DNA from: Emticicia aquatica
GTDB lineage: Bacteria > Bacteroidota > Bacteroidia > Cytophagales > Spirosomataceae
NCBI RefSeq assembly: GCF_923079645.1
Contig: NZ_CAKLPY010000002.1
Span: 744,001-808,000 of the forward strand
Length of the DNA stretch: 64,000 nt
Direction: 5' to 3'
Below the pieces are notes generated by a model that saw only the letters and a program-made list of their open reading frames with translations, was not told where the DNA came from and did no database searches. Every line of letters begins with the position of its first letter. Position 1 is the first letter of the stretch. Position numbers and translations under genes: made by a program. Positions 3,267 to 36,689 of the stretch are shown piece by piece.

Positions 3267-3271
3267 ATTTT

Positions 3272-3313
3272 ATTTGCATTTATATACCTACCGTTCGGTA
3301 TATAAATGCAAAT
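3272..3313. promoter_or_regulatory. Perfect 17-bp inverted repeat, probable TetR operator
   Basis: The arm ATTTGCATTTATATACC (3272-3288) is repeated as its exact reverse complement at 3297-3313 around the 8-nt centre TACCGTTC. The centre with its flanks forms a nested TACCG-TT-CGGTA palindrome, the type of core many TetR/AcrR operators carry. It lies in the 105-nt gap between the TetR gene and the amylase and ends 6 nt before the amylase ATG, where a bound repressor would block transcription. No T-run follows in the minus direction, so it is not a classic terminator. Confidence 0.75.
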
Positions 3314-3371
3314 GTATAAAAAATTTGATAAAATAATGTTATTGCAGAAAAAAATAGCTGAGAAAAAGCGA

Positions 3372-3962
3372 TTATGAATAAATTCCGTAAGAAAACTGTC
3401 TAATAATATCGTATTTTATTTGATCAGGAATGTGTTCTTCTTTACTAAGATAATACCGTGAAATGACCGAATGAATTAAACTCAAAAATCCCATCGCATA
3501 AAGTTGTTTTCTACCCACCATATTTCCATGATTTTCGGCAGCACGCTCAAATAAGTTTTCAAATAATTGGTACTGACGAGTTAAAAAAGGCAAAGCAACT
3601 TCGTGGACATCACTTTGCGTAGGCGGGTTTTCTAAAGTCAACAATAAGCGATAACAGATTGGATTTATTTCCGCAAAATTGATATAAACATCAACCACTT
3701 TTTCTAAAGAATTGGGCAAATCTCCACTATAATTGGAAGCAATTTCTAAAAGAGAAAGAAATGGCGTGAATTTTTCGGAAATCACAATTTTTAGTAAACC
3801 TTCTTTGCTTCCAAAATAATGATACAACGTTGGTTTTGATATTTTGGCCATTTCGGTTATTTCACGCACAGATACGGCATCGTAGCCTCGTTGTGCGAAT
3901 AATGTCAATGCACAAGAAATAATAAAATCTCGGTTATTCGATGAAGTATTTTCTTGTTCCAA
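3372..3962 (-). CDS. TetR/AcrR-family transcriptional regulator
   Basis: A 196-residue protein with the TetR N-terminal helix-turn-helix at about residues 12-58 (ALTLFAQRGYDAVSVREI, then ISKPTLYHYFGSKEGLL) and an all-alpha ligand/dimer domain behind it. The first codon is TTG at 3962; there is no ATG ahead of the HTH, so TTG or an upstream non-ATG codon must be used. It stands directly upstream of the GH13 gene on the same strand, with the palindrome in between. Control of the amylase by this protein is inference from position. Confidence 0.88.
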   Translation of the reverse strand: MEQENTSSNNRDFIISCALTLFAQRGYDAVSVREITEMAKISKPTLYHYFGSKEGLLKIVISEKFTPFLSLLEIASNYSGDLPNSLEKVVDVYINFAEINPICYRLLLTLENPPTQSDVHEVALPFLTRQYQLFENLFERAAENHGNMVGRKQLYAMGFLSLIHSVISRYYLSKEEHIPDQIKYDIIRQFSYGIYS

Positions 3963-4113: not shown

Positions 4114-5211
4114 CTACTTCAAAATACTCAAAATAGCTTCGCCAGTTGGTTTTTTTTCTGTGTCGGAGGCATTCATAAAATCAAAACCTAATAATTTTGC
4201 GGCCGTTCGAGCTACTTGATTTTGAAACAATTGACCTTCAGTTTTTACTTCGCCTAAAGGTTTTGTATCAGGCCCGATGGCTGCAATCCAAATTTGATAA
4301 CAATCCGAAACTCGCTGTCCGTGGCTCGTCCATTGCTTTTTTATTTTGTCACCTCGACCGTGGTCAGTCAAGAAAATAAAAGTTGTTTTGTCTTTATATT
4401 GCGGATGATTTTGGCAGAAATTCCATAAATCTGCAACATTTTTATCAAAATTATTTGCAGCAAAAAGGTATTCACGATATTTGGCTTCATGGGCAAATTC
4501 ATCAGTTTCGTCAAACGATAAAAACATCACTTTTGGCGTATTTTTCTTCACATATTCTTTGGCCAAATGATACGTCACGAAATCAAATCGATCGCTTGCA
4601 AAACTCGTAATATCAGTCTGAATTTGATTCAACAACTCTTCTTTTTCACTTAATTTCCCTTTTACAGTCTCAACCCCTGCATTGACAGGAACTCCGCTCC
4701 TATTTTCGTTGATGATAAAAGGAAAAACATCCCAAGTACCAAAAGCGGCAACTTTTCCCTTGAGTTTTGGTTGGTTGTTAAGAAACTCCAAAACGGTTGT
4801 ATTTTCATTTTGATTTTTGTTGTTTGAATTTATTTTATCATCGGGATAACCCGTCAAAACTTCGTTATAACCTGGATACGAAAACCAATAAGGATTCAAA
4901 ACATTGACTTTATTTCCTAACCAACGATTGCCATAAAGTTGTCCTTGTTTAGCTAATGTATTCCAGAAAAAAGGTAATAGTTTTTCGCGGCGTTCGGTAG
5001 CGGTTTTCGCCCAAAACTTTTGTACAGTTCGAGCCGAATCTGGCGTAAATTCTTTGCTAAAAATCAAGATAGAATCAGCTCCACCAAAAACCTCTTGCCA
5101 ACGAAAACCATCAGTCATTATGATGAACACATTTTCGGTTTTTGTTTGGGCAAAAATCGTTGGACTCGCCAAAAAGAAGCAAAGAAAAATAATTTTAGAA
5201 AAATATTTCAT
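4114..5211 (-). CDS. Periplasmic alkaline-phosphatase-superfamily hydrolase
   Basis: A 365-residue protein with a Sec signal peptide (cleavage after IFAQ). It carries a complete two-metal alkaline phosphatase-superfamily site: D34 (MTDGFRW), candidate nucleophile S111 (WFSYPGYNEVLTG), D237/H241 (DEFAH), D283/H284 (TDHGRGD) and H297 (TSHGQR). The spacing resembles nucleotide pyrophosphatase/phosphonoacetate hydrolase-type enzymes, which cleave phosphodiesters, phosphonate esters or C-P bonds. Its frame overlaps the end of the upstream PhnZ-like gene by 17 nt, so the two are translationally linked. Substrate not determined; a phosphonate or phospholipid head-group ester is an attractive guess from context. 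Confidence 0.82.
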   Translation of the reverse strand: MKYFSKIIFLCFFLASPTIFAQTKTENVFIIMTDGFRWQEVFGGADSILIFSKEFTPDSARTVQKFWAKTATERREKLLPFFWNTLAKQGQLYGNRWLGNKVNVLNPYWFSYPGYNEVLTGYPDDKINSNNKNQNENTTVLEFLNNQPKLKGKVAAFGTWDVFPFIINENRSGVPVNAGVETVKGKLSEKEELLNQIQTDITSFASDRFDFVTYHLAKEYVKKNTPKVMFLSFDETDEFAHEAKYREYLFAANNFDKNVADLWNFCQNHPQYKDKTTFIFLTDHGRGDKIKKQWTSHGQRVSDCYQIWIAAIGPDTKPLGEVKTEGQLFQNQVARTAAKLLGFDFMNASDTEKKPTGEAILSILK

Positions 5212-5776
5212 TGGTATTTTTGAAGGGGGAAAGATGTTTTTTACAAATATTGATAAAATATTCTAAATCTGGGAGTTCTATGTTTTCAACTTTGGCGGCT
5301 TCATCCCATCTTCGCATTTTTATGATTGTTTCAAAATAAGGGTTTAGTTCAAAAATTTTAGCTTCTTCGGCTGTCATTTTCCCACCTTGAAACGCCAAAG
5401 TTTTTTTGCTCGCATCAGATAAGTTATTGTAATATGCTTCATTGACAAAACATAAATAGCGTTTGGCATTGACATGATTTTCGATTAAAACAGCTATTTT
5501 CTCCGAAAAACCTCGTTCACGAAGCCAATCGGCAGCAACTGATTCGTGGTCTTTTCGGCCATAAACTTCCATTGTCTCTTCTTGCGAACTTACTGGCAAT
5601 AAATGCCCAATATCATGCAAAAAAGCGGCAATTTGTACCTCTTCATCAAATGCTTGCTTTTGTGCTAAAAGTGAAGCTTGAGCAGCGTGTTCAAACTGAC
5701 TGACGTTTTCGCCATAATATTCTTCGTTGCCTTGACTTTCAAAAAGTTGCCGAATTTCATTAATTACTTTTGTCAT
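5195..5776 (-). CDS. PhnZ-type HD-domain mixed-valence diiron oxygenase
   Basis: The protein is 193 residues from the ATG at 5776. The open frame extends to an ATG at 5821, but that codon abuts the T-run of a hairpin, so 5776 is preferred. It matches the phosphonate-operon HDIG family (TIGR03276). Ligands H30, H54-D55 (HDIGH), H77, H101 (NHVNAKRYL) and D158 (MRRWDEAAK) are spaced almost exactly as in PhnZ. Y20 and E23 of EYYGENVSQ correspond to PhnZ's substrate-gating Tyr/Glu. PhnZ/TmpB enzymes oxidatively cleave the C-P bond of 1-hydroxylated 2-aminoethylphosphonates. No PhnY/TmpA hydroxylase is in the window. Confidence 0.85.
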   Translation of the reverse strand: MTKVINEIRQLFESQGNEEYYGENVSQFEHAAQASLLAQKQAFDEEVQIAAFLHDIGHLLPVSSQEETMEVYGRKDHESVAADWLRERGFSEKIAVLIENHVNAKRYLCFVNEAYYNNLSDASKKTLAFQGGKMTAEEAKIFELNPYFETIIKMRRWDEAAKVENIELPDLEYFINICKKHLSPFKNTNEIFF

Positions 5777-5824
5777 AACAATCATTTGAATTTTATTTTG
5801 ACATAATTTATGTTGATTCATAAA

Positions 5825-5854
5825 AAAGTAGCGAAACAGTTGTTTCGCTACTTT
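5825..5854 (-). terminator. Hairpin plus T-run between susD and the PhnZ-like gene
   Basis: AAAGTAGCGAAACA (5825-5838) pairs with TGTTTCGCTACTTT (5841-5854). On the minus strand the stem is followed directly by six T residues. It lies 28 nt past the susD stop and ends at the longest possible start of the PhnZ-like gene. It should terminate or attenuate susCD transcripts before the two enzyme genes. Confidence 0.8.
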
Positions 5855-5882
5855 ACAAACTAAATCTATGATGGAACTATAA

Positions 5883-7382
5883 CTACTTTAATAACCAAAT
5901 TGATTCATTGATGTCATCATTTCCGCCTGAAAATTGACTTGTCAAAGCTGATTTAAGATTATCTTTATTTGTCGATAACTCCGAAGATGGATATTGCCAA
6001 CGTTTCGGAATTCTACCACTATTGCCGGTACCAACACCCACTAAGAAAGTTGGAACTCCAGTACGACGTTGGTTATACCAAGCTTCCATACCTGAATTTT
6101 GTGCAAAAGCTAAGTATTTTTGAGTTAATATTTGGGTCAAACCACTTGAAGTATTGCCAGTATATTTCACTAAATCTCCTGTTAAATAAGTATTTAACGC
6201 TGTTGCATCAACACCGTAAAAATTCATTGATGCAGAGATACCTTTCAGATAAAAATCTTCTGCCGAGCCAGTTGCCCAACCACGATTGATTCCTTCAGCA
6301 ATGTTAAAACAAGTTTCTGTATAAGAAATAATTGCAACTGCTTCACCAACATAATTGCTATAATATCTCTTTTTGCCTAAGAAAGAATATTCTCCTTTCA
6401 AGGCTTTTGTTGACATATCAGCTAAATCTTCGCCCGAACTTGCACCAACATAAGCAGCAAAATCAGTTGCTTTTAAACCTGCTTTCAATTTTGCATCGGC
6501 TGGTTCGGCAACAATAAACAAACGTGGGTCTTTGCGGTCAACTAATAAATCTATGTACGTTTTTGACATATTTTCACGCGTAGCATTGAATCCAAAATTA
6601 TCAGGATTACGAGGATATTTATTTACTGTATTATGAATATACTGTAAATTATCAGCCATGCTTGTCATTATCGGAAATTTGGTTGGATTGCCAACAATTT
6701 CAGCAAAACGAGCTTTGATGTTCAAGTCAGCATCCGTTTCTTTTTTACTCAAAGTCACTAATACTCTCAATTTGAAAGAGTTTACTACTTTTTGCCATTG
6801 ACGAAGGTTATTTCCTAAGTAAAAATCTCCTGCAAGGGTTTTATTACCATTGGCAATTAAAGTAGTTAAATCAGCATTCGATTCGTCGAGCCATTTTAAA
6901 ACTTGTACGTACACTTCTTTTTGTGTATTGTATTTAGGCGTTGCGTTATCCAAACCTTTCAAAGCATCAGTTAAAGGCAAATCTCCTACACGCTTTGTCA
7001 TATCTTCGTAGAAATAAGCACGGAAAAATTTACCCAAAGCTGTATAAGGATTTACCTCTGCTCCACCAGCAGCTTTAGCTTCTTCTTCCATTTTGATAAC
7101 GTTTTTTAACGTTGAGAAGCTAAGCCCAGTTGTTGTCCAACTATACTCGTTGGTTGCATAATAATCGTAGTTTGAGCAGTAAAATTGATTGTAGCGTTGT
7201 TGACTTCCCCACGGGCTTCCAGTTACACTATACATATCATTCAAGATTCCATTCAAAACCAATGATGCTGGAGCATTAACTGGGCGATTTGGGTCTTTTT
7301 CTAGTTCATCGAATGATTTTTCGCAACTTGTTAAAGAGAAAACTGCGATTGTCAAACCTAATAATATATTTTTGATTTTCAT
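5883..7382 (-). CDS. SusD/RagB-like outer-membrane lipoprotein (SusD-like_2 type)
   Basis: A ~499-residue lipoprotein starting at the ATG at 7382; the longer frame to 7445 runs through an inverted repeat and is unlikely to be translated. The signal ends in the lipobox SLTSC, followed by EKSFDELEKDPNRPV, the usual N-terminus of this SusD class. Helical TPR-like stretches and the C-terminal RRTGVPTF and RIPKRWQYPSSEL segments are typical. SusD proteins cap the SusC channel and bind the ligand at the cell surface. The susC gene is directly upstream. Context suggests a phosphonate or phosphorylated ligand rather than a glycan, but no sequence feature proves it. Confidence 0.9.
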   Translation of the reverse strand: MKIKNILLGLTIAVFSLTSCEKSFDELEKDPNRPVNAPASLVLNGILNDMYSVTGSPWGSQQRYNQFYCSNYDYYATNEYSWTTTGLSFSTLKNVIKMEEEAKAAGGAEVNPYTALGKFFRAYFYEDMTKRVGDLPLTDALKGLDNATPKYNTQKEVYVQVLKWLDESNADLTTLIANGNKTLAGDFYLGNNLRQWQKVVNSFKLRVLVTLSKKETDADLNIKARFAEIVGNPTKFPIMTSMADNLQYIHNTVNKYPRNPDNFGFNATRENMSKTYIDLLVDRKDPRLFIVAEPADAKLKAGLKATDFAAYVGASSGEDLADMSTKALKGEYSFLGKKRYYSNYVGEAVAIISYTETCFNIAEGINRGWATGSAEDFYLKGISASMNFYGVDATALNTYLTGDLVKYTGNTSSGLTQILTQKYLAFAQNSGMEAWYNQRRTGVPTFLVGVGTGNSGRIPKRWQYPSSELSTNKDNLKSALTSQFSGGNDDINESIWLLK

Positions 7383-7411
7383 TTTCTTGAGTGTTTTTGT
7401 GAAATATTTTG

Positions 7412-7450
7412 GGTAATTGGCAATTAATTTTAAACTAATTGCCAATTACC
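7412..7450. repeat. 15-bp perfect hairpin between susC and susD
   Basis: GGTAATTGGCAATTA (7412-7426) pairs with TAATTGCCAATTACC (7436-7450) across a 9-nt loop. It sits in the 82-nt spacer between the susC stop and the susD ATG. No T-run follows in the minus direction, so it looks more like an mRNA-stability or processing element than a terminator. Confidence 0.7.
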
Positions 7451-7464
7451 AAAGTCACTAATAA

Positions 7465-10400
7465 TTAAAATACCAAATTCAAGTTCATACCGAAGCGACG
7501 GGTAGTTGGCGTTTGTAAGCCAGAGCGTCCGCCCGATGTATATTGGTCTAAGTCAATGTCTTTACGTGCAGCAAAATACAATAAGTTACGAGCCACAAAC
7601 GAGATTGATGCTTGGTTCATGCCTATTTTCTTAGCGAAGCTTGAAGGTAAGTTATAACCTAAAACAACTTCACGGAGTTTTGCAAAGCTACGACTCATCA
7701 TATTTCCACCATTGAAGCCATAACGACGAGCAACATAATCTTGTAAGAATGTTTTGGTTGTATTTGGAGCAAATTGTAGTTCAGCATAATTTGTGATGTT
7801 TCCAAGAGCATCGTATTTGATTGCTACACCATTAGAAATCGCCACGCCATCACCTACGTAAGATTTTATGCCCAATACATCTTGGTCACGAGCAATACCC
7901 ATTTCGCCTTCAACAGTATTAATGATACGTCCACCTGCCCACGTTTTTTGTTCAACATAGTCAGAAATAACGCCACCTACACGGCCATCAAATTGGAAAC
8001 TAAAATTGATATTTTTGTAGTTAAATCTGTTGTTGATACCCCAAACCCAATCAGGGTTTGTGTAACCTAAAAATTGTGGTACAGGGTTGATAACTGGGCG
8101 TCCACCTGCATCATTGATAATTTGACCATCTGGCGTACGAGCGTAAGTTCGGTCAAAATATCCATCAACTCTATCACCAATATTTACGAATCTTGCACTG
8201 CTGCTACTTCCCACAAAATAATCAGATGATAATTGAGTGATTCCTGGATAAATTTCTTTTAGCGTTTCTTTGTATGTTGACCAGTTTGCTAAAATCGTCC
8301 AATTCAAACCACTTGTATTTTTAAGAACTTGGCCAGAAAGTGATAATTCAATACCTTTTTTCTGAGTTTTAATACCATTTACCAAAGCAGCCGAATAACC
8401 TGATGTTTGCGAGATTGGTAAGTTAAAAATACGTGGGCCTTCGTCACTTACGAAATAAGCCGCATCAAATACCAAACGATTTTTCAAGAAACGAATATCT
8501 AAGCCAATTTCTGACTGAGCCGTAGTATTTGGTTTGATGTTAGGGTTATTAAGCGTGTTTGTGTAATATGCCGCCGTTTGATTGTTATAAATCAAAGGGG
8601 TAGAATAAACTGCTGAGTTTTGGTAAGTTGGTCCACCATAAGATGATGAATAATTATCGCCATAACCTAATGGAAACGACAATCCTGGAGTAGAACCAAT
8701 CGTAGATTGCGTCAAACCATCTTTTACGTTTGCGTATGAAGCACGAAGTTTCAAGAATGAAATGGCTGCTGGTAATTTTACGTAATCCGAGACAACCGAA
8801 CTCATCGCTACCGATGGGTAGAAGAATGTATTGTTTCCTTTTGGTAGTGTAGAAAGTTTATCAACACGACCAGTCGTTGAAAGTGTCACGAAATCTTTTA
8901 CCGAGAAATCAGCCGAATAATATGCTGAATTTACTCTCATATCAGAGTTGAAATTTGAAGCAATTACAGGATTGGCTGAGTTTGCAAAATTATATACTCC
9001 TGGAACATTCAAATAATTAGTAGAAGCATAGTCCGAATTATAATTAAAAATACGCGTATTTGCTCCTGCAATAGCATTGATTGTTAATGCTGGGATTACT
9101 TTTTTGCTATATTTTAACAATAAATCGGTATTGCTATCAAACAAGTTTCTGCGGTCTTCACGATAATCTCCACGAGCTTCTTCACGACCATAAACTGTCA
9201 TTGAATAAGGGAACTTTTCGGTACGCAATAAATTCCAAGTCGAAAGTTGTGTACGAAGCGTAGCATCCAAACCATCTGCGATGTGATAACGCAATGAAGT
9301 TTGACCAATAATGTCAGTTTTGTAGTGTCCCCGCAACCATTCTTTTGCCATAAACCAAGGGTTGTTATAACGTTGGTACTCCGCATAAACTTGTTGTGTA
9401 CCCTCTTTACCTGGCTGCCAATAATTTTTAAGTTCGTCAATATCCCAGTCAGCACCACCCCAAATCGTGATGTTATAAATCATCGAATTTGGCCCATAAT
9501 TTACGTCAGGGAAATTTGGCGTGTACTGACGATTTACTTGTACATCACCCTCAAAACGCAATCTATCAGTAAAATTATAACCCGTAGTTACTTTAAAGTT
9601 TGTGCTGTTCAATTTTGTATTTGGCACGATTCCTTGTTGGTAATTATGCGAAACCGAAAAACGCAAATCATATTTTTCTCCCGAAGAAGAAATCGCAATG
9701 TTATTGGTTGAAAGAATACCCGTTTGAATAAATCTTCTCAAATTGTTTGCTCCTCTTGCAATATATGGCGTTGGTTGACGATTACTTGTAAAAGTACTAC
9801 CGTTTGGAAATTTAGTTGTAAAACTACCTCCATCAACTACTGGACTATCGTATTGTGGAATTAACTGGCCACTAAATTTTGGTCCCCAAATATCATAATC
9901 ACCATCGTTCAATCCACCACCACGACCATCAGCAAAAGCATAAACACCGTGGTCACCTGGGCCATATAAATCTTGTGTGTTTGGAATCGCTAAAAAGCCT
10001 TTGTCAAGCATTTGGCTACTATTTACCTCAACCGAGAAACCACGTTTATCTTTCGAGCCACGCTTCGTTGTAATCAAGATTGCTCCATTTTTTCCACGGA
10101 AACCATACAATGCAGATGCTGAAGCACCTTTCAAAACAGAATAAGTTTCTATATCATCAGGACTAATATTCCAAGTATCAGAGTTAACAGGCACACCATC
10201 AACTACAAAAAGCACATCACTATTTCCACGTAATACTATTTGCGGACGACCAAGCAACTCCGAAGATGCACCAATAGTAAGACCAGCAACTTTACCAACT
10301 AAGCCATTGATTGGATTTGGCTCACGAGCCTTTAATAACGAAGCAGCATCAACACTCTGAATCGAAACACCAGTAGTACGAATGTCTTTTCTGATACCCA

Positions 10401-10752
10401 ATGCAGTAACCACAACTTCATTTAATGTTTTGTTGTCTTCCTGTAAACTTACATTGATAATTGACTGACTACCAAGCACTTGCTCTTGCGTAACAAAACC
10501 AATAGAAGAGAAAACTAAAACCGTACGAGACGAAACTCCATTTAGTTTATAGTTTCCATTGGCATCTGTGTTTGTTCCTTGATTTGAACCTTTAACGAGT
10601 ACACTTACCCCTGGAATCGGGTCTCCATTTGGAGAAGAAACTTTGCCGCTAACATTTTGATTTTGAGCATTGGCATACATTACGGCCAACAACATACAAA
10701 ACAAAATTCTGAGAAAACCAGAAAACTTGGTTTTAAGTAAAGATTTGTTCAT
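7465..10752 (-). CDS. SusC/RagA-family TonB-dependent outer-membrane transporter
   Basis: A 1095-residue protein. The signal peptide (to YANAQ) is followed by a carboxypeptidase-regulatory-like beta domain (GKVSSPNGDPIPGVSVLVKG, residues ~33-110). Next come a TonB-box-like segment EVVVTALGI, a plug domain with the SusC-type VLFVVDGVPV and GRNGAILITT-like motifs, and a 22-strand barrel ending in NLVF. It imports large or scarce ligands using TonB energy. It pairs with the SusD downstream. Unlike a typical glycan locus there is no glycoside hydrolase beside it; the neighbours are phosphonate-type enzymes. Confidence 0.93.
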   Translation of the reverse strand: MNKSLLKTKFSGFLRILFCMLLAVMYANAQNQNVSGKVSSPNGDPIPGVSVLVKGSNQGTNTDANGNYKLNGVSSRTVLVFSSIGFVTQEQVLGSQSIINVSLQEDNKTLNEVVVTALGIRKDIRTTGVSIQSVDAASLLKAREPNPINGLVGKVAGLTIGASSELLGRPQIVLRGNSDVLFVVDGVPVNSDTWNISPDDIETYSVLKGASASALYGFRGKNGAILITTKRGSKDKRGFSVEVNSSQMLDKGFLAIPNTQDLYGPGDHGVYAFADGRGGGLNDGDYDIWGPKFSGQLIPQYDSPVVDGGSFTTKFPNGSTFTSNRQPTPYIARGANNLRRFIQTGILSTNNIAISSSGEKYDLRFSVSHNYQQGIVPNTKLNSTNFKVTTGYNFTDRLRFEGDVQVNRQYTPNFPDVNYGPNSMIYNITIWGGADWDIDELKNYWQPGKEGTQQVYAEYQRYNNPWFMAKEWLRGHYKTDIIGQTSLRYHIADGLDATLRTQLSTWNLLRTEKFPYSMTVYGREEARGDYREDRRNLFDSNTDLLLKYSKKVIPALTINAIAGANTRIFNYNSDYASTNYLNVPGVYNFANSANPVIASNFNSDMRVNSAYYSADFSVKDFVTLSTTGRVDKLSTLPKGNNTFFYPSVAMSSVVSDYVKLPAAISFLKLRASYANVKDGLTQSTIGSTPGLSFPLGYGDNYSSSYGGPTYQNSAVYSTPLIYNNQTAAYYTNTLNNPNIKPNTTAQSEIGLDIRFLKNRLVFDAAYFVSDEGPRIFNLPISQTSGYSAALVNGIKTQKKGIELSLSGQVLKNTSGLNWTILANWSTYKETLKEIYPGITQLSSDYFVGSSSSARFVNIGDRVDGYFDRTYARTPDGQIINDAGGRPVINPVPQFLGYTNPDWVWGINNRFNYKNINFSFQFDGRVGGVISDYVEQKTWAGGRIINTVEGEMGIARDQDVLGIKSYVGDGVAISNGVAIKYDALGNITNYAELQFAPNTTKTFLQDYVARRYGFNGGNMMSRSFAKLREVVLGYNLPSSFAKKIGMNQASISFVARNLLYFAARKDIDLDQYTSGGRSGLQTPTTRRFGMNLNLVF

Positions 10753-10833
10753 AAAAAGATGATTAGAATTATTTGGTTTATTTTACTGCTTTCAGCAAAA
10801 AGTAGGTTTTGAAAGCTTTAAATTTTGATGGTG

Positions 10834-10841
10834 CAAAGGTG
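10834..10841 (-). promoter_or_regulatory. Candidate -7 box of the susCD promoter
   Basis: On the minus strand CACCTTTG, followed by CACC, differs in one base from the Bacteroidota -7 consensus TAnnTTTG. It lies about 80 nt before the susC ATG. A matching -33 TTTG was not seen, so this is tentative. Confidence 0.35.
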
Positions 10842-10935
10842 CGGAACTTGTATAACCTGAATATGAAGCCAGTTTTAAGCTATTATGAAGGAATAGAGAG
10901 TTTTGTTAGGTTTGTGTTAAGTAATTTATGGTAAC

Positions 10936-11730
10936 TCACAAAACCAAAGCTACTTTTTCAATCCATTTTTCAAGGTTTTGCTCATAAATTTTTCGGTATT
11001 CTGCAATGATTGATTGATGTTTTTTCTGAAATGTAAAAGTCATTTTTTTACTAACTGACTTATCTCGAAGCACACATTCAAAATTATTGACTCTTCCTAC
11101 AAATAGTCTGTAATAATCACTCAAAGGAGTTTTATGCTGAAAATGATATGACTCATTTTCACAAAACTGAATCGCAGTTTCATTAATTGCCAAGCCTTTA
11201 GCAAGCCAGTTTTCATCTTTAGATAAACCTTCGTATCTAAAATATTTACCATAAAAGACGCCATTTTTCTTTTTTTCTGATGGTTTTGTGTAAAAAAGAT
11301 AATAGTCTGAATTTTCAATATCAATATAAAAGTGCTTGATTTTCATAGATTCAATCCATTGCCCAACAGTAAGTGGTTTTTGTTCATCCACAAAATAATC
11401 AAAAACGTATTCGTTGGCTTCATGCTGAATCAGCAAAGCCACATGAAAACCCCACGTAAGATAACCTTTGGGTGAAATCTCATTAGGGTCATGCAATTGA
11501 ATCGTCAATTTTGATACTTCGTCGAAACGAGTTGGGGCATAAATCCATATCTTCTTGTGCGAAACTCCATAATTCCGCAAAATCAACGACGCATAATGCG
11601 ATACATTATGACAGTTTCCTTGTTTATATCGAAATAATGGATTCAAATAATAGCGTAACTCTTCAAAATAGTTTTCAAAGTAATTAGTACCGTTTCGTAA
11701 CCCCAAAGATTGAATTGTCTCTAAAACCAT
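10936..11730 (-). CDS. Protein-glutaminase-like (papain-fold) protein
   Basis: The protein is 264 residues from the ATG at 11730; the longer frame begins with TTG at 11748. No signal peptide is visible. A cysteine-protease-like triad can be read: C40 in GNCHNVSHYASLIL, H96 in WGFHVALLI, and D111 or D115 in YVFDYFVDEQKPL followed by a conserved W in VGQWIESM. This order and the Asp-Pro-Leu-Trp context resemble protein-glutaminase (Gln_deamidase_2) or transglutaminase-like folds. The remainder is unlike anything recognised. It lies between the susC promoter and the divergent phosphonatase-like gene. Deamidase activity is inference only. Confidence 0.6.
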   Translation of the reverse strand: MVLETIQSLGLRNGTNYFENYFEELRYYLNPLFRYKQGNCHNVSHYASLILRNYGVSHKKIWIYAPTRFDEVSKLTIQLHDPNEISPKGYLTWGFHVALLIQHEANEYVFDYFVDEQKPLTVGQWIESMKIKHFYIDIENSDYYLFYTKPSEKKKNGVFYGKYFRYEGLSKDENWLAKGLAINETAIQFCENESYHFQHKTPLSDYYRLFVGRVNNFECVLRDKSVSKKMTFTFQKKHQSIIAEYRKIYEQNLEKWIEKVALVL

Positions 11731-11908
11731 TATAGCGTTTTTTGGCAAAAGTATAAGGTCGAAATTCGACGATTTCTATTTTTATTATTAAGTATTTGTT
11801 AATTATTAAAGCCTAATATTAGCTTAACAATTTCTTCATATTTAGGTAAAACCAAACTAATTTTAAAGGGTTTACTTTGCTAAAAAATAAGAACAAACAA
11901 CATCAACA

Positions 11909-12634
11909 ATGTCTGCAATAAAATTAGTTGTCTTCGATATGGCGGGAACAACCATCCAAGATAAAAAAGAGGTCGAAACTTGTTTTGCCCAAGCTTGCAA
12001 AAAGACAAATCTGGAGGTTACGGATGAAAGAATTTTAGCACTACAAGGCTACTCTAAAATTCATGTTTTCAAATTACTTTGGGGCGAACGCCTTGGCGAT
12101 TCTCATCCAGAATTGAAAGAAAAAGCTAATTTTTCATACGATGTTTTTACCGAAATTCTCGAAAACCACTATCACCAAAGTCCAATTTTACCGACTGATG
12201 GATGTTTAGAAACTTTATCTTTTCTAAGAGAAAATAATATAAAAATAGCTTTAACAACTGGTTTTTACCGAAAAGTAACCAATATTATATTAGGAAAACT
12301 CGGTTGGTTAGATGGTCTTGACAAAAATCATTTTAATACTTCTGGCACAAGTATCATTGATTTATCTATTACGAGTGATGAAGTTGAAAAAGGTCGCCCA
12401 GAGCCATTAATGATTCAGAAAGCGATGAAAATTTTCAATATTACAGACCCTAAAGAAGTCATCAATATCGGCGATACTCCCTCCGATTTACAATCAGGAG
12501 TACGAGCAGGTTGTCGATTATCTTTAGGTTTGACCAACGGAACTCATACGCAAGAGCAACTAAAAATCTATCGTAACGATGGCCTTTTATCATCTTTGAA
12601 CGAGTTAAAAGCAGTGATTCAACCATTAATTTAA
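11909..12634 (+). CDS. Phosphonatase-like HAD hydrolase (TIGR03351 type)
   Basis: A 241-residue HAD-superfamily enzyme. The nucleophile motif is FDMAGTT with D10 and A12, the DxAGT form that distinguishes phosphonatases from ordinary HADs. A cap-domain lysine (K50 in GYSKIHV) is placed like the Schiff-base Lys of PhnX. GRPEP supplies the Arg that replaces the usual HAD Lys, and GDTPSD binds Mg. PhnX cleaves phosphonoacetaldehyde to acetaldehyde and phosphate; this sister clade is predicted to use that or 1-hydroxy-phosphonoacetaldehyde. The next gene, 13 nt downstream, is the FAD oxidoreductase this clade is known to travel with. PhnW transaminase is absent. Confidence 0.85.
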   Translation: MSAIKLVVFDMAGTTIQDKKEVETCFAQACKKTNLEVTDERILALQGYSKIHVFKLLWGERLGDSHPELKEKANFSYDVFTEILENHYHQSPILPTDGCLETLSFLRENNIKIALTTGFYRKVTNIILGKLGWLDGLDKNHFNTSGTSIIDLSITSDEVEKGRPEPLMIQKAMKIFNITDPKEVINIGDTPSDLQSGVRAGCRLSLGLTNGTHTQEQLKIYRNDGLLSSLNELKAVIQPLI

Positions 12635-12647
12635 TTTGTAAATTTGT

Positions 12648-13790
12648 ATGAAATACGACTTAATTATTGTTGGCTCTGGCATACTCGGAACTGCTCACGC
12701 TTACCACGCAGCCAATCAAGGAAAAAAAGTTTTAATCTTAGAAAAAGATAATTTTCCTGTTGGCTCAACTGTTCGTAACTTCGGTCAAGCCGTTGCTTCT
12801 GGAATGGCAGGACGTTGGTTTGATTTTGGTGTAAAATCACTTAGAATTTACCAAGAAATTCAACAAAAATTCGATATTTCAGTCCGTAAAAATGGCAGTA
12901 TTTATATCGCTTCCGACGAGGATGAATGGCTTTTAGCCAATGAACTTTATCAACATCATCAAACGACAGGATATCCGTGTAATCTTTTATCAAAAAGACA
13001 GTGTTTAGAAATGTACCCTGAGCTAAAACCAGATTATGTGAGAGGTGCAATTTATTTTCCTGAAGATGCAAGTGTAGAACCTAATCTATTGATTTACAAG
13101 TTATTAAACTTCATTCAAGAACAAAAAAACGTTGCTTTTAGAAATAATACAACTGTTATTTCTTGCGAAGAAAATGCGGACGAAGTAATTATTAAAACTG
13201 CTGAAAACGAAAAGATTTCAGCTACAAAAGTGTTAGTTTGTTGCGGATACACTTTCAATATTCTCTTTCCAACTATTTTCAAGAATAGTGGATTAATTGT
13301 AAGCAAATTACAAATGCTTCAAACTGTACCGATGACCAATGTATTATTGTCAGGAAATATCCTAACAGGCTTGTCAATTCGTAGATATGAGTCTTTTGAA
13401 GCAATGCCTTCATATAAAAAAATTACAACTCCAGAACATTATTTAACACTCAAGAAATGGGGTATTCATATACTTTTCAAGCAAGCTATTGATGGCTCAA
13501 TTATCATCGGAGATTCGCATGAATATGCTCCCGTTGGTAAAACTGACGAACTCGGTTTTGATACAAAAGAGTTAATTGACGAGTTAATTTTGAAGGAAGC
13601 TGAAAGAATTGTGCATTTCCCAGTTAGAAAAATAGCTAGAAAATGGGCTGGATTTTACGCCCAACATCCTGACGAAATATTTGAGTATGACATCACTCCA
13701 AATATCCATATCTGCACTGGAATTGGTGGAAAAGGCATGACTTCAAGTCTAGGCTTTGCTGAATATAGCTTAGAAAAACTATTCAACTAA
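12648..13790 (+). CDS. TIGR03364-type FAD-dependent amino(phosphonate) oxidoreductase
   Basis: A 380-residue DAO-fold flavoprotein with an N-terminal dinucleotide motif (IVGSGILGTAHAYHAA) followed by an acidic strand end (LILEKD). A C-terminal flavin/substrate segment reads GIGGKGMTSSLGFAE. It is related to deaminating amino acid oxidases (PF01266) and belongs to the class repeatedly found next to phosphonatase-like HAD genes. The expected reaction is oxidative removal of the amine from 2-aminoethylphosphonate or N-methyl/hydroxy derivatives, supplying the aldehyde to the preceding gene's product. Same strand, 13 nt apart: an operon of two. Confidence 0.85.
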   Translation: MKYDLIIVGSGILGTAHAYHAANQGKKVLILEKDNFPVGSTVRNFGQAVASGMAGRWFDFGVKSLRIYQEIQQKFDISVRKNGSIYIASDEDEWLLANELYQHHQTTGYPCNLLSKRQCLEMYPELKPDYVRGAIYFPEDASVEPNLLIYKLLNFIQEQKNVAFRNNTTVISCEENADEVIIKTAENEKISATKVLVCCGYTFNILFPTIFKNSGLIVSKLQMLQTVPMTNVLLSGNILTGLSIRRYESFEAMPSYKKITTPEHYLTLKKWGIHILFKQAIDGSIIIGDSHEYAPVGKTDELGFDTKELIDELILKEAERIVHFPVRKIARKWAGFYAQHPDEIFEYDITPNIHICTGIGGKGMTSSLGFAEYSLEKLFN

Positions 13791-13866
13791 ATATCAAAAA
13801 CATATTTTTGAAGATATTTAACAATCAAAACCTCTAGTTAAAAGCATCGAAAAGTTAAAATACAAT

Positions 13867-13904
13867 ACATTATTTTCATTGAATTCTTACAATGAAAATA
13901 ATGT
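13867..13904. terminator. 15-bp inverted repeat between convergent genes
   Basis: ACATTATTTTCATTG (13867-13881) pairs with CAATGAAAATAATGT (13890-13904) across an 8-nt loop, in the gap where the FAD oxidoreductase (+) and the DUF5690 gene (-) converge. A weaker hairpin, TCAAAAA/TTTTTGA at 13794-13811, lies just after the oxidoreductase stop. They probably act as terminators, although T-runs are short. Confidence 0.55.
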
Positions 13905-13947
13905 TAACTCATACACTTACGAATTCTATTTTTGCTGCTAAATTATC

Positions 13948-15228
13948 TCAAACTGCAACTTCTATTTTGGTATTTAGTTTCCGAATAAAAAACCAAACTG
14001 AAATTCCCCAAAGAACAAAACTCAAAGTAAAAATCCCGTAACCAAGATTTACCAAGACATTTACCCAGCTCAATTCTTTCATAAAAAACTCACGGTACAT
14101 CATCAATAAAACGCTTCCGAGATAACCCATCGAATCGCAGATATAGACAAAAAAACCTGCGTTGGCGTTGAGTTTAAAAACTGCAATAAACCTTTCAAAA
14201 TATAAAGTTTGAATAAGTAAATAAGGTAAAAAGAAAGAAATTCCGAGCAGAATCATCCAATTATAAGCAGACAATGCTCCTTGTTGAAAGAACCAAGTGC
14301 TCAATCCACACGCCATAATTCCGAGCAAAATCAGTAATTGAATATACGCAAACGCTTTGTCGTTTTCTTTAATAAAACCAACACTTGCGAGTAAAATCAG
14401 CACAAAAAAACCAATCAACATTTCAGATTGTGCGAAAGTGTTTTTATCAAAATTCACATGCAAACTTCGCCAAATTTCGACTGAGAAATTATCTCTAAAA
14501 TCCCGAATCATGGTGAGCATAACATAAACTAAAGCGATTGCCCAAAAACCCCAAGAAAACTCTTGTAAAAGTTTATTTTTTCCCGATTTATTCATCGGAT
14601 TTCTCTTATTTCGAACTTGTAAATCTTCTGCATTGGGAGGTGGGATTTTTGCTAACATCCAAACAAAAAAAAGAAAAATTGGCAAAAATATTAATCCAAT
14701 GAAAGCAGGCATCCAAAACTCTGAAATCTGCATTAAACTACTGATAGTCAAATAAATAGTTTTCAAAATCCCCGAACCCATCACCAAATTTATACTCAAT
14801 CCGATAGCGATAAACTCTGTAATTCGACGACCTTCAAGAAAGCAAAAAATAACACCCCAAACCATTCCTAAAGGCAAACCATTGAACAACATACAAATCC
14901 AATTATACGAATAAGGAATCAGCCCAAATAATATCAAAGCGATTTCCGAAATTAATATTAAGCTGATAATCAGGGCAATACGTTGATTTGCTCGAAGTTC
15001 CGAAATTATTTTTATGCCCAAAACTTTAGAAAGCATATAACCCAAAACTTGAGTAATTATCAAAACTGTTTTATAACTTAATCCAAATAATTCGTAACCT
15101 TCATACAAGCCTGTATTAAATGGTTTTCGGAAAGCGTACATACAAAAATACGTTCCGAAGGCAGCAATAATACACCAAATTATAAGAAAAGATTGTTTTT
15201 GAAGAAGTGTTTTTAGAGTGTATTTCAT
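13948..15228 (-). CDS. DUF5690 family MFS-like inner-membrane transporter
   Basis: The protein is ~426 residues from the ATG at 15228 (the longer frame begins upstream at 15249) with about 12 predicted membrane spans. The start region reads YFCMYAFRKPFNTGLYEG, characteristic of the DUF5690 family of Bacteroidota; a charged RNKRNP loop divides the two halves. The MFS fold suggests solute import or export. Its place beside the phosphonatase-like/oxidoreductase pair, facing it tail to tail, makes it the best candidate for inner-membrane uptake of the locus substrate. Substrate not known. Confidence 0.75.
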   Translation of the reverse strand: MKYTLKTLLQKQSFLIIWCIIAAFGTYFCMYAFRKPFNTGLYEGYELFGLSYKTVLIITQVLGYMLSKVLGIKIISELRANQRIALIISLILISEIALILFGLIPYSYNWICMLFNGLPLGMVWGVIFCFLEGRRITEFIAIGLSINLVMGSGILKTIYLTISSLMQISEFWMPAFIGLIFLPIFLFFVWMLAKIPPPNAEDLQVRNKRNPMNKSGKNKLLQEFSWGFWAIALVYVMLTMIRDFRDNFSVEIWRSLHVNFDKNTFAQSEMLIGFFVLILLASVGFIKENDKAFAYIQLLILLGIMACGLSTWFFQQGALSAYNWMILLGISFFLPYLLIQTLYFERFIAVFKLNANAGFFVYICDSMGYLGSVLLMMYREFFMKELSWVNVLVNLGYGIFTLSFVLWGISVWFFIRKLNTKIEVAV

Positions 15229-15325: not shown

Positions 15326-16774
15326 TTAAAATTGTACCGCTCCAGCAAACTGCAAAGTTGCAATTGCTTTTTCATACTTTGCTTTCAATGTTTCTAGTTT
15401 TGTTTGCATTTCTAGCCATTTACTTTCTCTCGAATTTATCAAAAAAAGTGTACTCTCGCCGATGTCAAATTTCTGTTTTTCGGCTTCTAACAACCTTAAT
15501 TGGCTCGAATTTGCAGAGGTTTGTTGTTCGATTTGGCGAGTCAGGTTTGTTACTTCATTGTAAGCACTTTCTATTTCTGTTTTGATTTCACGTGTAATAA
15601 TCGTTTTTTCTAAAGACGTTTGCAGTTGCTTTATTCTTACAGATTGAAGTTTTCCACGTTCTTTTCTCAGGAAAATCGGCATTGCGAAATCAAATCCAAA
15701 CTTATGATTATTCAGCAAAAAGGCATTTGCAAACGCATCTTTTTGGTAGTTTAAAGGAGCATTTAGCACATTAAAATTGAAATTCAGCTGCGGTTTCAAC
15801 ATTTCAACCCTAAACTTTTCTTCAATCGTCAGTTGTTTTTGTTTAAAAATTATTTTAGCAATTTCGGGATGATTGACTTCCAAATTTTTTAAAATCTCAT
15901 CTACTTTTTGCCGTTCCAAAACCATTGGTTGAATCAATTGTGGAATAAAATCAGTGTTCAATTCCAAAGGTTGTTCGCTAGCATTCCACAAATAATTTGA
16001 AAGTGCAAGCGTTGCATTCTGAAATTCCAACGTAGATTGTTCTTTTATAACCAATCTGTCTTGTACCGTAATACTCGCCTCTACGCTATCAATGGCTGCA
16101 ATTTCGCCGACTTTTGCTCTTTCACTTAACCATTTGAATCTATCTTCTGCAATTCGATAGGCTTCCTGATTTAATTTAAGTTTTTGATAAGTCAAATACC
16201 ATTCCCAATAATCTTTGGCTGCCGAAAAGATAAATTTATTGATGATTTTTTGTTTTTCAGAAATGGCAATATCATTCAAAATTTTTGCTTGAAGTAACGT
16301 ATTTCTTCGAGCATCAATCAATAATCCTTGTCCAATCGGCACAGTCACGCCGCTAAACAGCAAACTCGGAGATTCTTCGTTAAGTAGTTTTACTCCTGCA
16401 TTGCGTTCGTAACCACCTTTCAACTCGATTCCACTATAAATTGGCACTTTCAAAATCGACTCGAAACGATTATAGTAGTCTTTTCCTTCAAAAGCTTTTC
16501 GGTCAAAAACAACAGATATTTTTGGATCGAAAAGTCCTTTTGCTTGCATCAATTCGGCAGCAGCATCCTTTATATACAGATTCGCTTGCTTGACAACTGG
16601 ATGGTTTTTAAGAATAATTTCTTGAAAATCTTGAAAAGAAAAAACCTCTGTTTTTTGCGAAAAAGTCATTTGTGAGACCAATATTAAGGCAAAAAACATC
16701 CAAACCTTTGTTATTTTGTATCTATAAAACTTTACTACATTTGTCATTTTTATGCTAAAATAATAATCTTTCAT
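15326..16774 (-). CDS. TolC-family outer-membrane efflux protein
   Basis: A 482-residue protein with a signal peptide (cleavage after MTFSQ; an internal ATG at 16747 is an alternative start). The two OEP repeats are evident as long amphipathic helices: residues ~45-240 (QANLYIKDAAAELMQAKGLF, LYDP-like FDPKISV) and ~290-470 (TREIKTEIESAYNEVTNL). It forms the trimeric outer-membrane exit duct. It is the last gene of a minus-strand operon behind an HlyD adaptor (40-nt gap) and an ABC exporter, giving a full type I secretion set. Confidence 0.88.
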   Translation of the reverse strand: MKDYYFSIKMTNVVKFYRYKITKVWMFFALILVSQMTFSQKTEVFSFQDFQEIILKNHPVVKQANLYIKDAAAELMQAKGLFDPKISVVFDRKAFEGKDYYNRFESILKVPIYSGIELKGGYERNAGVKLLNEESPSLLFSGVTVPIGQGLLIDARRNTLLQAKILNDIAISEKQKIINKFIFSAAKDYWEWYLTYQKLKLNQEAYRIAEDRFKWLSERAKVGEIAAIDSVEASITVQDRLVIKEQSTLEFQNATLALSNYLWNASEQPLELNTDFIPQLIQPMVLERQKVDEILKNLEVNHPEIAKIIFKQKQLTIEEKFRVEMLKPQLNFNFNVLNAPLNYQKDAFANAFLLNNHKFGFDFAMPIFLRKERGKLQSVRIKQLQTSLEKTIITREIKTEIESAYNEVTNLTRQIEQQTSANSSQLRLLEAEKQKFDIGESTLFLINSRESKWLEMQTKLETLKAKYEKAIATLQFAGAVQF

Positions 16775-16814
16775 TCCCCAAAATTAGTACGTATAAAAAC
16801 GTGCTTTACATTTC

Positions 16815-18167: not shown

Positions 18168-18220
18168 AAATCTTTATCTATTTAACGCCAAAAACTATTC
18201 TGCTTGAGAGTGTTTTTGGT

Positions 18221-21990: not shown

Positions 21991-22683
21991 TCAACTATAC
22001 CTATCATTTCGCCAAGGATAAGCAGTATTTGAGTAACCTCTTTCTTCCCAAAAACCTAGTTTGTTTTTTGGTAAAAATTCAATTCTTTTTATCCATTTTG
22101 AGCCTTTCCATGCGTAAAGTTGCGGTGTAATCATGCGAGCAGGCCCACCATGTTCTTTCGTTAAAGGTTCGTTATAAACTGTATGAGCAATCAAAACATC
22201 TGGTTTCAAGGCTTCTTCAAGCGAAACATTGGTTGTGTAAGTATCATAACCATAACACATGATATGAGTAGCAGTTTCTTTGGGTTGTACCAAAGCAGCC
22301 AAATCAACCAAACGTACACCTTTCCAAACCATGTCCATTTTCGACCAAGTGGTTACGCAATGAAAATCGCTCGTGTCTTCTACTTGCGGCAAAGCCATGA
22401 AATCCTCCCACGTTAAAATTACTGGATTTTCAACTTCGCCATTAATGGTCAATCGCCAACGCTCAAGTGTAATATCAGGATGATAACCCAAATCAAGCAC
22501 AGGCCATTTGATGGTTTTTGTCTGCCCAGTAGGTAATTGTGGCATTCCATGACGATTGACAGCTCCAGTTCCCATTGGCTTATGATCGGCCATCGAAGGC
22601 GTATTTTTCATTTTATCCTCAAATCGAGTTTTCAACTTCATTCTCGCCTCGATTATTCGGTCTAATTTACTTTGTTCTTCCAT
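21991..22683 (-). CDS. Sulfite-oxidase-like molybdopterin oxidoreductase (cytoplasmic)
   Basis: A 230-residue protein consisting of the oxidoreductase molybdopterin-binding domain only (PF00174). The Mo-coordinating cysteine is C109 in DFHCVTTWSKMD; VWKGVRLVDLAALV and PARMITPQLYAWKGSKWIK follow, then the C-terminal WEERGYSN. Unlike MsrP/YedY there is no Tat signal, so it probably stays in the cytoplasm. Members are common in bacteria but their substrate is not established. It is a single-gene unit with its own terminator. Confidence 0.85.
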   Translation of the reverse strand: MEEQSKLDRIIEARMKLKTRFEDKMKNTPSMADHKPMGTGAVNRHGMPQLPTGQTKTIKWPVLDLGYHPDITLERWRLTINGEVENPVILTWEDFMALPQVEDTSDFHCVTTWSKMDMVWKGVRLVDLAALVQPKETATHIMCYGYDTYTTNVSLEEALKPDVLIAHTVYNEPLTKEHGGPARMITPQLYAWKGSKWIKRIEFLPKNKLGFWEERGYSNTAYPWRNDRYS

Positions 22684-33962: not shown

Positions 33963-33982
33963 TTGAAATGTTATTTTGAAAA

Positions 33983-35386: not shown

Positions 35387-35411
35387 GCTTGTGTCGGGTT
35401 AAATAATGAAT

Positions 35412-35604: not shown

Positions 35605-35626
35605 AACTCATTTAGAAGAAAACTAA

Positions 35627-36660: not shown

Positions 36661-36689
36661 ATTAAACTATGATGAAACAAAACTACAAA

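What the first reader, a model, noticed from the sequence alone, without database searches (positions are those of the whole stretch)
4114..15228. Putative organophosphonate-use locus joining a SusCD pair to three phosphonate-type enzymes
Seen: susC, susD, a PhnZ-type HD oxygenase and a secreted alkaline-phosphatase-superfamily hydrolase on one strand; a phosphonatase-like HAD enzyme (DxAGT, cap Lys), a TIGR03364-type FAD oxidoreductase and a DUF5690 MFS protein beside them. Known: the HAD/FAD pair and the HD oxygenase family are both named from phosphonate operons. Inference: the SusCD pair imports a phosphonate or phosphonolipid head group, the periplasmic hydrolase frees it, the MFS protein brings it inward, and two different C-P cleaving routes act on it. 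A SusCD system dedicated to phosphonates rather than glycans would be new as far as I know.
Basis: partly seen in the sequence, partly recalled or inferred. Interest (0 to 1): 0.88.

Follow-up and report, generated by a model that had tools for sequence, protein, structure and literature searches.

The report
Aminophosphonate import and breakdown gene cluster
A bacterium carries a gene cluster, also found in many relatives, that very probably takes in aminoethylphosphonate-type molecules through an outer-membrane importer usually linked to sugars and breaks their carbon-phosphorus bond for phosphate.

Summary
In detail: all seven genes are present.

In 295 class genomes, 10 of 11 close SusD homologues (window included) lie near a PhnZ-type gene that only 30 genomes have. 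In the order, 58 of 81 close SusD loci have a C-P enzyme within about 10 kb; 22 of the other 23 genomes hold one elsewhere. More distant SusD: 2 of 23. One relative has the same transport set beside canonical phnW-phnY-phnA; a Hymenobacter plasmid carries the set.

New here: DUF5690 tracks phosphonate enzymes (36 of 38 genomes) and folds like GlpT/G6PT, so is probably the inner-membrane permease; Pho-box-like CTTAACA repeats precede susC and HAD.

Not shown: ligand, periplasmic step, induction. SusCD is missing from 14 of 50 full-length FAD loci. Phosphate-starvation SusCD (PusCD), stated to be co-localised also with phosphonate-degrading enzymes, were reported in Flavobacterium (PMC8115612), so the idea is not wholly new. 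Verdict: a well-supported, widespread new variant of that kind.

The parts
3372..3962 (-). TetR-type regulator beyond the AP gene on the same strand (membership in the system uncertain)
   Evidence: PF00440 66.1 bits; a 77% identical gene at the same place in L033
4114..5211 (-). Alkaline-phosphatase-superfamily hydrolase with a signal peptide seen by eye; proposed periplasmic phosphodiesterase or phosphonate-ester hydrolase
   Evidence: PF01676; D34, S111, D237, H241, D283, H284, H297 invariant in 17 sequences; AF2 pLDDT 85.3; Foldseek LtaS/LtaP, sulfatases, YejM, ENPP6, NPP
5195..5821 (-). PhnZ-type HD di-iron oxygenase
   Evidence: TIGR03276 above cut-off; best solved relative PhnZ 4n71/4mlm; ligand positions conserved in 90 or 91 of 91 rows
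5883..7445 (-). SusD-like outer-membrane lipoprotein (start probably the ATG at 7382)
   Evidence: PF12771, PF12741; close homologues linked to C-P enzymes; start codon
7465..10752 (-). SusC/RagA TonB-dependent transporter
   Evidence: TIGR04056 and TIGR04057 above cut-off
10904..10921 (-). Pho-box-like tandem repeat (13 of 14 to CTTAACA-N4-CTTAACA), 169 bases upstream of the susC ATG
10936..11748 (-). Gln_deamidase_2 protein, lineage-specific neighbour, role unknown
11812..11829 (+). Pho-box-like tandem repeat (12 of 14), 97 bases upstream of the HAD gene
11909..12634 (+). Phosphonatase-like HAD hydrolase (nearest TIGR03351, below its cut-off)
   Evidence: D10 and cap K50 in 105 of 105 aligned rows
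12648..13790 (+). FAD amine oxidoreductase, TIGR03364 (PbfD type)
   Evidence: 366.6 bits, cut-off 285.1; TIGR03364 member PbfD1 oxidises N-methyl-AEP (PMC10590968)
13948..15249 (-). DUF5690 MFS protein, proposed inner-membrane aminophosphonate permease (start probably the ATG at 15228)
   Evidence: PF18943; co-occurrence; AF2 pLDDT 89.2; Foldseek top hits G6PT/SLC37A4, GlpT rank 13

Best explanation
An aminophosphonate-scavenging locus. SusCD imports AEP-type compounds (2-aminoethylphosphonate, its N-methyl and 1-hydroxy forms), probably still esterified to a glycan or lipid head group [inferred]. The periplasmic AP-superfamily enzyme cuts the ester and frees the phosphonate [inferred]. The GlpT-like DUF5690 permease carries it inward [inferred from co-occurrence and fold]. 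In the cytoplasm the PbfD-type FAD enzyme oxidises N-methyl-AEP or AEP to phosphonoacetaldehyde, which the HAD phosphonatase splits to acetaldehyde and phosphate [chemistry known for family members; residues intact here]. In parallel the PhnZ-type oxygenase splits 1-hydroxy-AEP to glycine and phosphate [same basis]. Transcription of susC and of HAD-FAD is probably raised by the phosphate-starvation regulator through CTTAACA repeats [inferred from a motif].
For: Reverse test from SusD: 10 of 11 class genomes, window included; 58 of 81 order loci, with enzymes elsewhere in 22 of the other 23 genomes against 5 of 26 SusD-negative genomes; more distant SusD 2 of 23. Exchange of the C-P module beside the same SusCD-AP-HD set: phnA, phosphonoacetaldehyde dehydrogenase and phnW in L094, all over curated cut-offs. 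PbfA (692.8, cut-off 525), which acts on 1-hydroxy-AEP, in loci that share FAD and DUF5690 but lack the HD gene and SusCD. A Hymenobacter plasmid carries SusC, SusD (47% to the window's), an AP homologue (50%), HD, HAD and FAD together. An Acinetobacter plasmid puts TIGR03364 beside a 2-AEP ABC transporter, phnW and phosphonoacetaldehyde hydrolase. Catalytic residues intact. DUF5690 in 24 of 24 FAD genomes and 28 of 30 HD genomes, and beside PhnX-, PhnZ- and PhnW-type genes without SusCD (L116-L118). Box motif enriched before susC and HAD, mainly at the 11-base period. AEP and N-methyl-AEP occur on invertebrate and protist glycans (PMC6994554, passages).
Against: No ligand, activity or expression data. 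HAD below both curated cut-offs. 14 of 50 full-length FAD loci have no SusCD nearby. L093 (G035) and L202 (G423) hold this SusCD in genomes without a TIGR03364 or TIGR03276 match. The motif was found before only 24 of 86 linked susC genes, 13 of the 22 stronger ones from Pedobacter and kin, and its consensus was read by eye from Emticicia promoters. A phosphoesterase of the four types was found near 49 of the 58 linked order loci, not all. No AEP alpha-hydroxylase was identified, so the HD enzyme would need ready-made 1-hydroxy-AEP.
Confidence: 0.75

Rival explanations
1. The SusCD-AP part is a general organophosphate (phosphodiester) scavenger of the PusCD type; the phosphonate enzymes are merely co-regulated neighbours in one phosphate-starvation island.
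For: SusCD-AP without C-P enzymes in L093; weaker SusD homologues lie beside NPP phosphodiesterases (L217-L221, L224) or a protein family whose one searched member is a Y_phosphatase3 (L202; family in L204, L206, L210, L212, L215 by clustering); Flavobacterium PusCD sit beside phosphatases and phosphodiesterases; the same motif precedes PHO4 and GDPD genes.
Against: Linkage to C-P enzymes is far above that of more distant SusD (58 of 81 against 2 of 23); 22 of 23 genomes with unlinked SusCD keep phosphonate genes elsewhere; SusCD-AP-HD stays when the C-P module is exchanged.
Confidence: 0.17
2. An ordinary glycan-utilisation pair that happens to lie beside phosphonate genes.
For: SusD-like proteins usually bind glycans; a GH13-type alpha-amylase gene lies about 0.85 kb beyond the AP gene (1908-3266), also in L033.
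Against: No glycoside hydrolase in the operon; the amylase gene was seen in only 1 of the 62 FAD loci, L033, though several of these loci end before that place; linkage to phosphonate enzymes across families.
Confidence: 0.04
3. The HAD and FAD enzymes handle a compound other than AEP-type phosphonates.
For: HAD below the phosphonatase cut-offs; a phosphonatase-like HAD subfamily without catalysis is known (PcrP, PMC12632274, passages).
Against: Nucleophile Asp and cap Lys in 105 of 105, both reported missing in PcrP; phnWYA beside the same SusCD set and PbfA beside FAD and DUF5690.
Confidence: 0.04

Closest known systems
PusCD / PUS clusters of Flavobacterium (PMC8115612; passages and section 19 read)
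   Same: SusCD pair with periplasmic phosphoesterases, tied to phosphorus supply; [quoted passage not shown]
   Different: Here one SusD clade is tied across several families to PbfD/PhnX/PhnZ-type enzymes and DUF5690, with the C-P module exchanged beside it; phosphate induction was shown there, not here. I had no PusD sequences to compare
PbfD-PhnX aminophosphonate clusters (PMC10590968; abstract, passages, sections 8, 15 part 1 and 19 read)
   Same: TIGR03364-type FAD enzyme beside a phosphonatase, phnW often absent
   Different: No SusCD, AP-superfamily hydrolase or DUF5690 came up in what I read; the HAD here is nearest TIGR03351 and below its cut-off
PhnY-PhnZ oxidative pathway
   Same: PhnZ-type oxygenase with conserved ligand positions
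   Different: No PhnY hydroxylase identified in the locus or among the genome's three PhyH proteins
AepP, GlpT-related 2-AEP permease of Pseudomonas putida (PMC8316502; passages read)
   Same: MFS carrier tied to aminophosphonate use; GlpT-like
   Different: DUF5690 is a separate Pfam family with no detectable profile match to solved transporters; AepP itself was not compared with it

Membership tests
PusCD / phosphate utilisation system | SusC plus SusD pair | tested here: met
PusCD / phosphate utilisation system | co-localised periplasmic phosphomonoesterase or phosphodiesterase | tested here: met
   AP-superfamily gene with intact metal-ligand positions; activity untested
PusCD / phosphate utilisation system | induced by phosphate depletion | not testable with these tools
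   only a Pho-box-like motif at susC and HAD
Glycan PUL | carbohydrate-active enzymes in the susCD operon | tested here: not met
   nearest is an amylase gene 1908-3266 beyond AP and TetR
TIGR03364 / PbfD | score above curated cut-off | tested here: met
   366.6 against 285.1
TIGR03364 / PbfD | oxidation of N-methyl-AEP | not testable with these tools
   needs the purified enzyme
PhnX / TIGR03351 phosphonatase | score above curated cut-off | tested here: not met
   162.6 against 218.9 and 93.6 against 220; a homologue in L056 does pass TIGR03351 (225.8)
PhnX / TIGR03351 phosphonatase | DxAGT nucleophile and cap Schiff-base Lys | tested here: met
   D10 and K50 in 105 of 105; K50 aligns with the residue that differs between 2iof (K) and 2ioh (R)
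PhnZ / TIGR03276 | score above curated cut-off | tested here: met
   216 against 214.6
PhnZ / TIGR03276 | di-iron ligands, Tyr24 and Glu27 equivalents (which residues these are is recalled) | tested here: met
   Y35 E38 H45 H69 D70 H92 H116 D173 in 90 or 91 of 91; alignment to 4n71
PhnZ / TIGR03276 | PhnY-type hydroxylase partner | tested here: inconclusive
   three PhyH proteins in the genome, none near and none matching a phosphonate model at E 1e-8; I did not check that the library holds a PhnY hydroxylase model
GlpT / organophosphate antiporters (DUF5690) | fold | tested here: met
   Foldseek ranks 1-7 G6PT, GlpT rank 13, TM by query 0.63-0.67; other MFS carriers score nearly as well
GlpT / organophosphate antiporters (DUF5690) | two substrate-binding Arg in TM1 and TM7 (recalled) | tested here: inconclusive
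   R34 (with K35) and R242 invariant in 21; no residue-level superposition
GlpT / organophosphate antiporters (DUF5690) | profile-level sequence match to a solved member | tested here: not met
   0 hits at E 10
Alkaline phosphatase superfamily | metal ligands and nucleophile (motif recalled) | tested here: met
   nucleotide pyrophosphatase/phosphodiesterase best by profile, E 0.0064

The most novel reading that the evidence does not exclude
A widespread SusCD clade of Bacteroidota is dedicated to phosphonate-decorated glycans or lipids: an outer-membrane importer, a periplasmic ester hydrolase, a new organophosphonate permease family (DUF5690) and exchangeable C-P modules, under a Bacteroidota Pho box of CTTAACA repeats. 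It would be the first outer-membrane route defined for aminophosphonates as conjugates rather than as free small molecules.
Probability: 0.42. Interest if true: 0.82.

Novelty: new variant of a known kind. Interest (0 to 1): 0.64.

Why it matters
SusCD pairs are a main import route of Bacteroidota and are usually read as glycan importers, so a clade that marks aminophosphonate use would change how many loci are annotated and would show how these bacteria enter the phosphonate part of the phosphorus cycle. It offers a role for DUF5690 (no paper in the held library contains that term) and a candidate Pho box for the group. It also makes one question directly testable: whether the AEP and N-methyl-AEP that decorate glycans and lipids of invertebrates and protists are a phosphate source for bacteria.

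Tried and rejected
Rejected: chance adjacency. Rejected: strict exchange of the PhnZ-type gene by PbfA at genome level. No locus held both (0 of 62), but 3 of the 4 class genomes with PbfA also have a PhnZ-type gene elsewhere. The five PbfA loci of that set have no SusCD nearby, so there the shared carrier is DUF5690, not SusCD.

Own error, corrected: the neighbour annotations chose the longest ORF and hid genes under antisense ORFs (seen in L199, L151, L213, L214). redid it with all ORFs; where I quote 32, 40, 56 or 73, counts are lower bounds.

Bias: loci L031-L092 were fetched with the FAD enzyme, so they do not tell whether SusCD implies phosphonate enzymes; for that I use only. In the tree rows from L031-L092 count as linked by construction. 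The order test used 104 of the 118 SusD matches (window excluded); the 14 not fetched are 32-38% identical, except the second piece of one split gene, which lies in a fetched region. Three of the 23 unlinked loci are contigs under 8 kb (L143, L162, L198), one is a 10 kb contig (L204), two genomes (G435, G604) hold a linked copy as well, and in G577 the enzymes lie about 30 kb away. The presence of TIGR03364 or TIGR03276 in the 26 SusD-negative genomes (5) is an imperfect control: only 3 to 5 SusD candidates per genome were scored, and G500, counted negative, has another SusCD (33% to the window's SusD) between its FAD and HD genes (L235).

Motif: consensus read by eye from Emticicia susC promoters, then tested with these left out, at other periods, on shuffles and on control genes. 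For susC and HAD period 11 stands out; for NPP (13 of 38 at period 11, 11 of 38 at period 10) and DUF5690 (12 of 92 at both 8 and 11) it does not. Control genes also peak at 11 (44 of 1018). Rows are related, so the Fisher values overstate independence and are not quoted. Of the 10 control genes at 12 or more of 14, seven are phosphate-linked on a generous count (PHO4, GDPD, the TonB receptor beside it, two calcineurin-type phosphoesterases, Exo_endo_phos, Y_phosphatase3), five on a strict one (without the receptor and Exo_endo_phos); three are not. Of 10 random control genes one was. This was judged after the fact.

Led nowhere: profile search of DUF5690 against PDB sequences; phmmer of the AP protein; papers for a Bacteroidota Pho box (listings only, none opened but PMC4415409, which gives no Bacteroidota consensus in the passages seen).
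Full report
WHAT IS THERE. The window is C2:744001-808000 of an unnamed 4.94 Mb genome. The FAD enzyme is closest to Emticicia (69-72% identity), so an Emticicia-like member of the Cytophagales is inferred. On the minus strand lie susC, susD, a PhnZ-type HD gene and an AP-superfamily gene, the last two overlapping by 17 bases. HAD and FAD follow each other on the plus strand 13 bases apart; DUF5690 faces them. A Gln_deamidase_2 gene lies between susC and HAD. The assignments stand, except that the HAD scores below the curated lines of both phosphonatase models.

RESIDUES. The HD protein's solved relatives are PhnZ (E 2.8e-42) and TmpB. The positions matching PhnZ's ligands (which residues these are is recalled) are kept in 90 or 91 of 91 rows. 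The HAD keeps nucleophile D10 and cap K50 in 105 of 105; K50 aligns with the residue that is K in 2iof and R in 2ioh. This sets it apart from the catalytically dead PcrP type (PMC12632274, passages). The AP protein keeps D34, S111, D237, H241, D283, H284 and H297 in 17 of 17. Its model (pLDDT 85.3) matches LtaS/LtaP, sulfatases, YejM, ENPP6 and NPP, and its profile is nearest NPP in the PDB (E 0.0064). That fits a phosphodiesterase-like enzyme but does not fix the substrate.

IS SUSCD REALLY TIED TO PHOSPHONATES? Starting from SusD in 295 class genomes, 11 genomes, the window's own among them, have a homologue at 49% identity or more. Ten lie within 15 kb of a TIGR03276 gene, which 30 of 295 genomes have at E 1e-30 (16 over the curated cut-off); 7 lie within 15 kb of TIGR03364 and 7 of DUF5690. 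The three weaker matches (37-38%) are near none. The exception is G035 (L093), which keeps AP-SusD-SusC alone. In 390 order genomes I examined 104 of 118 matches. With SusD at 400 bits or more, 58 of 81 loci have a C-P enzyme within about 10 kb (57 the HD gene, 46 FAD); at 300-400 bits 1 of 8; below 300 1 of 15. Of the 23 without, 22 belong to genomes with TIGR03364 or TIGR03276 elsewhere, against 5 of 26 SusD-negative genomes. Sixteen of the 23 are one genus (g158). Fifteen of these form a SusD clade nested inside the linked clade, and one of these genomes carries HAD-FAD-NPP-PbfA-DUF5690 with an XRE regulator as a separate cluster (L234). The simplest reading is one move of susCD away from its partners.

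MODULES ARE EXCHANGED. In L094 the same susC-susD-AP-HD set is followed by PhnA (495.8, cut-off 407.55), phosphonoacetaldehyde dehydrogenase (665, cut-off 635.65), PhnW (485.3, cut-off 400.8), another FAD enzyme and DUF5690. In five other loci PbfA (692.8 in the one scanned, cut-off 525), which acts on (R)-1-hydroxy-AEP, is present where the HD gene is not; these share FAD and DUF5690 with the window but have no SusCD nearby, and at genome level PbfA and the HD gene can coexist. Among 62 FAD loci, SusC is near in 43, SusD in 40 (32 of the window's clade at 400 bits or more, 8 more distant), HAD in 40, DUF5690 in 43, HD in 19 and one of four unrelated phosphoesterase types in 46. Of 50 full-length loci 36 have SusC or SusD, so SusCD is frequent, not obligatory. 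A Hymenobacter plasmid carries HD, SusC (49%), SusD (47%, 441 bits), an AP homologue (50%), an NPP-type protein, HAD (57%), XRE and FAD (45%) in a row. An Acinetobacter plasmid has TIGR03364 with a 2-AEP ABC transporter, phnW and phosphonoacetaldehyde hydrolase.

DUF5690. It is present in 24 of 24 FAD genomes, 28 of 30 HD genomes and 36 of 38 genomes with either, and in 42 of 295 overall. It also sits beside PhnX-, PhnZ- and PhnW-type genes where no SusCD was found in the stretch (L116-L118). The model (pLDDT 89.2) gives G6PT/SLC37A4 as Foldseek ranks 1-7 and GlpT at rank 13, though other MFS carriers score close. R34, K35 and R242 are invariant in 21 sequences, at the places where GlpT has its phosphate-binding arginines (recalled, not superposed). 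AepP, a GlpT-related 2-AEP permease, is a precedent (PMC8316502, passages). A role as aminophosphonate permease is likely. No paper in the library holds the term DUF5690.

REGULATION. Two copies of CTTAACA at an 11-base period, the architecture of a Pho box (PMC4415409, passages), occur upstream of susC at 11 or more of 14 matches in 24 of 86 linked and 16 of 22 unlinked close homologues (shuffles 2.3% and 0%). By contrast they occur in 1 of 32 more distant susC, 50 of 1054 control genes, 2 of 83 HD, 0 of 46 AP and 10 of 118 FAD genes; HAD has 28 of 95, DUF5690 14 of 98, NPP 13 of 38 and PbfA 5 of 5. With Emticicia-type loci left out, linked susC has 18 of 80 and unlinked 16 of 22, and period 11 stands out against 8-15 for susC and HAD. 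Linked susC genes thus mostly lack a detectable box, and many positives are Pedobacter. In the window susC scores 13 and HAD 12. Of 10 control genes with strong matches five to seven are phosphate-linked, against one of 10 random ones. I read this as a likely Pho box; binding is not shown.

MECHANISM. FAD enzymes of this family oxidise N-methyl-AEP, some also AEP, to phosphonoacetaldehyde, and related ones occur with phnX alone (PMC10590968). TIGR02326 finds no PhnW over its cut-off in this genome, so FAD plus HAD would be the whole hydrolytic route. The HD enzyme would take 1-hydroxy-AEP directly, as no hydroxylase was identified. AEP and N-methyl-AEP occur as glycan and glycolipid decorations in gastropods, AEP also in locust, jellyfish and protists (PMC6994554, passages), which would explain a SusCD plus ester hydrolase; this step is inference.

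KNOWN AND NEW. PMC8115612 (passages and section 19) reports Pi-induced SusCD (PusCD) in Flavobacterium and states in one clause that the six PusCD complexes are co-localised with PMEs, PDEs and phosphonate-degrading enzymes. Searches for SusC, SusD, SusCD or TonB-dependent with phosphonate terms (partial listings, passages of six listed papers opened) gave no experimental phosphonate SusCD in what I saw. So the kind is known in outline. The clade, its conserved module across families, the exchange of C-P modules, the DUF5690 assignment and the motif are new as far as those searches reach.

Noticed in passing
   Followed up: partly
L236 (Hymenobacter sp. NBH84 plasmid, 125.5 kb): A plasmid carries the whole set HD-SusC-SusD-AP-NPP-HAD-XRE-FAD, with a second TonB receptor and SusD pair about 5 kb beyond FAD: the module can travel.
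   Followed up: partly
L054, L055, L065, L091, L105, L235: A second, distant SusCD subfamily (about 30% to the window) takes a like place beside FAD/HD genes.
   Followed up: partly
L217-L221, L224; L202, L204, L206, L210, L212, L215: Weaker SusD homologues lie beside NPP-type phosphodiesterases or a protein family whose one searched member is Y_phosphatase3; the wider SusD group may be an organophosphorus lineage.
   Followed up: partly
L156:7010-8473, L033:16023-19781: CTTAACA repeats with the 11-base period precede a PHO4 phosphate transporter, a GDPD gene and a TonB receptor beside it.
   Followed up: partly
G000 C2:537394-538527: A second DUF5690 gene in the window's genome; context not examined.
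   Followed up: no
L054, L055, L064-L066, L085, L087, L091, L104, L105, L116-L118, L121, L167, L199, L222: A PHP-domain protein recurs in these 17 loci; possibly another phosphoesterase.
   Followed up: no
31947-42646: A second SusCD pair (SusD_RagB type) with a GH3 gene, a 3-keto-disaccharide hydrolase-domain gene and an AraC-type regulator: looks like an ordinary glycan locus.
   Followed up: no
47310-50421: LysR regulator, Cons_hypoth698 protein and a sulfite-oxidase-type molybdoenzyme in a row; another Oxidored_molyb gene at 21991-22683.
   Followed up: no
15326-20353: By eye, a TolC-like, an HlyD-like and an ABC-exporter-like gene in a row next to DUF5690; not searched against families.
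   Followed up: no
1908-3962: GH13-type amylase gene and TetR gene beyond the AP gene, both also in L033 at 76-77% identity.
   Followed up: partly
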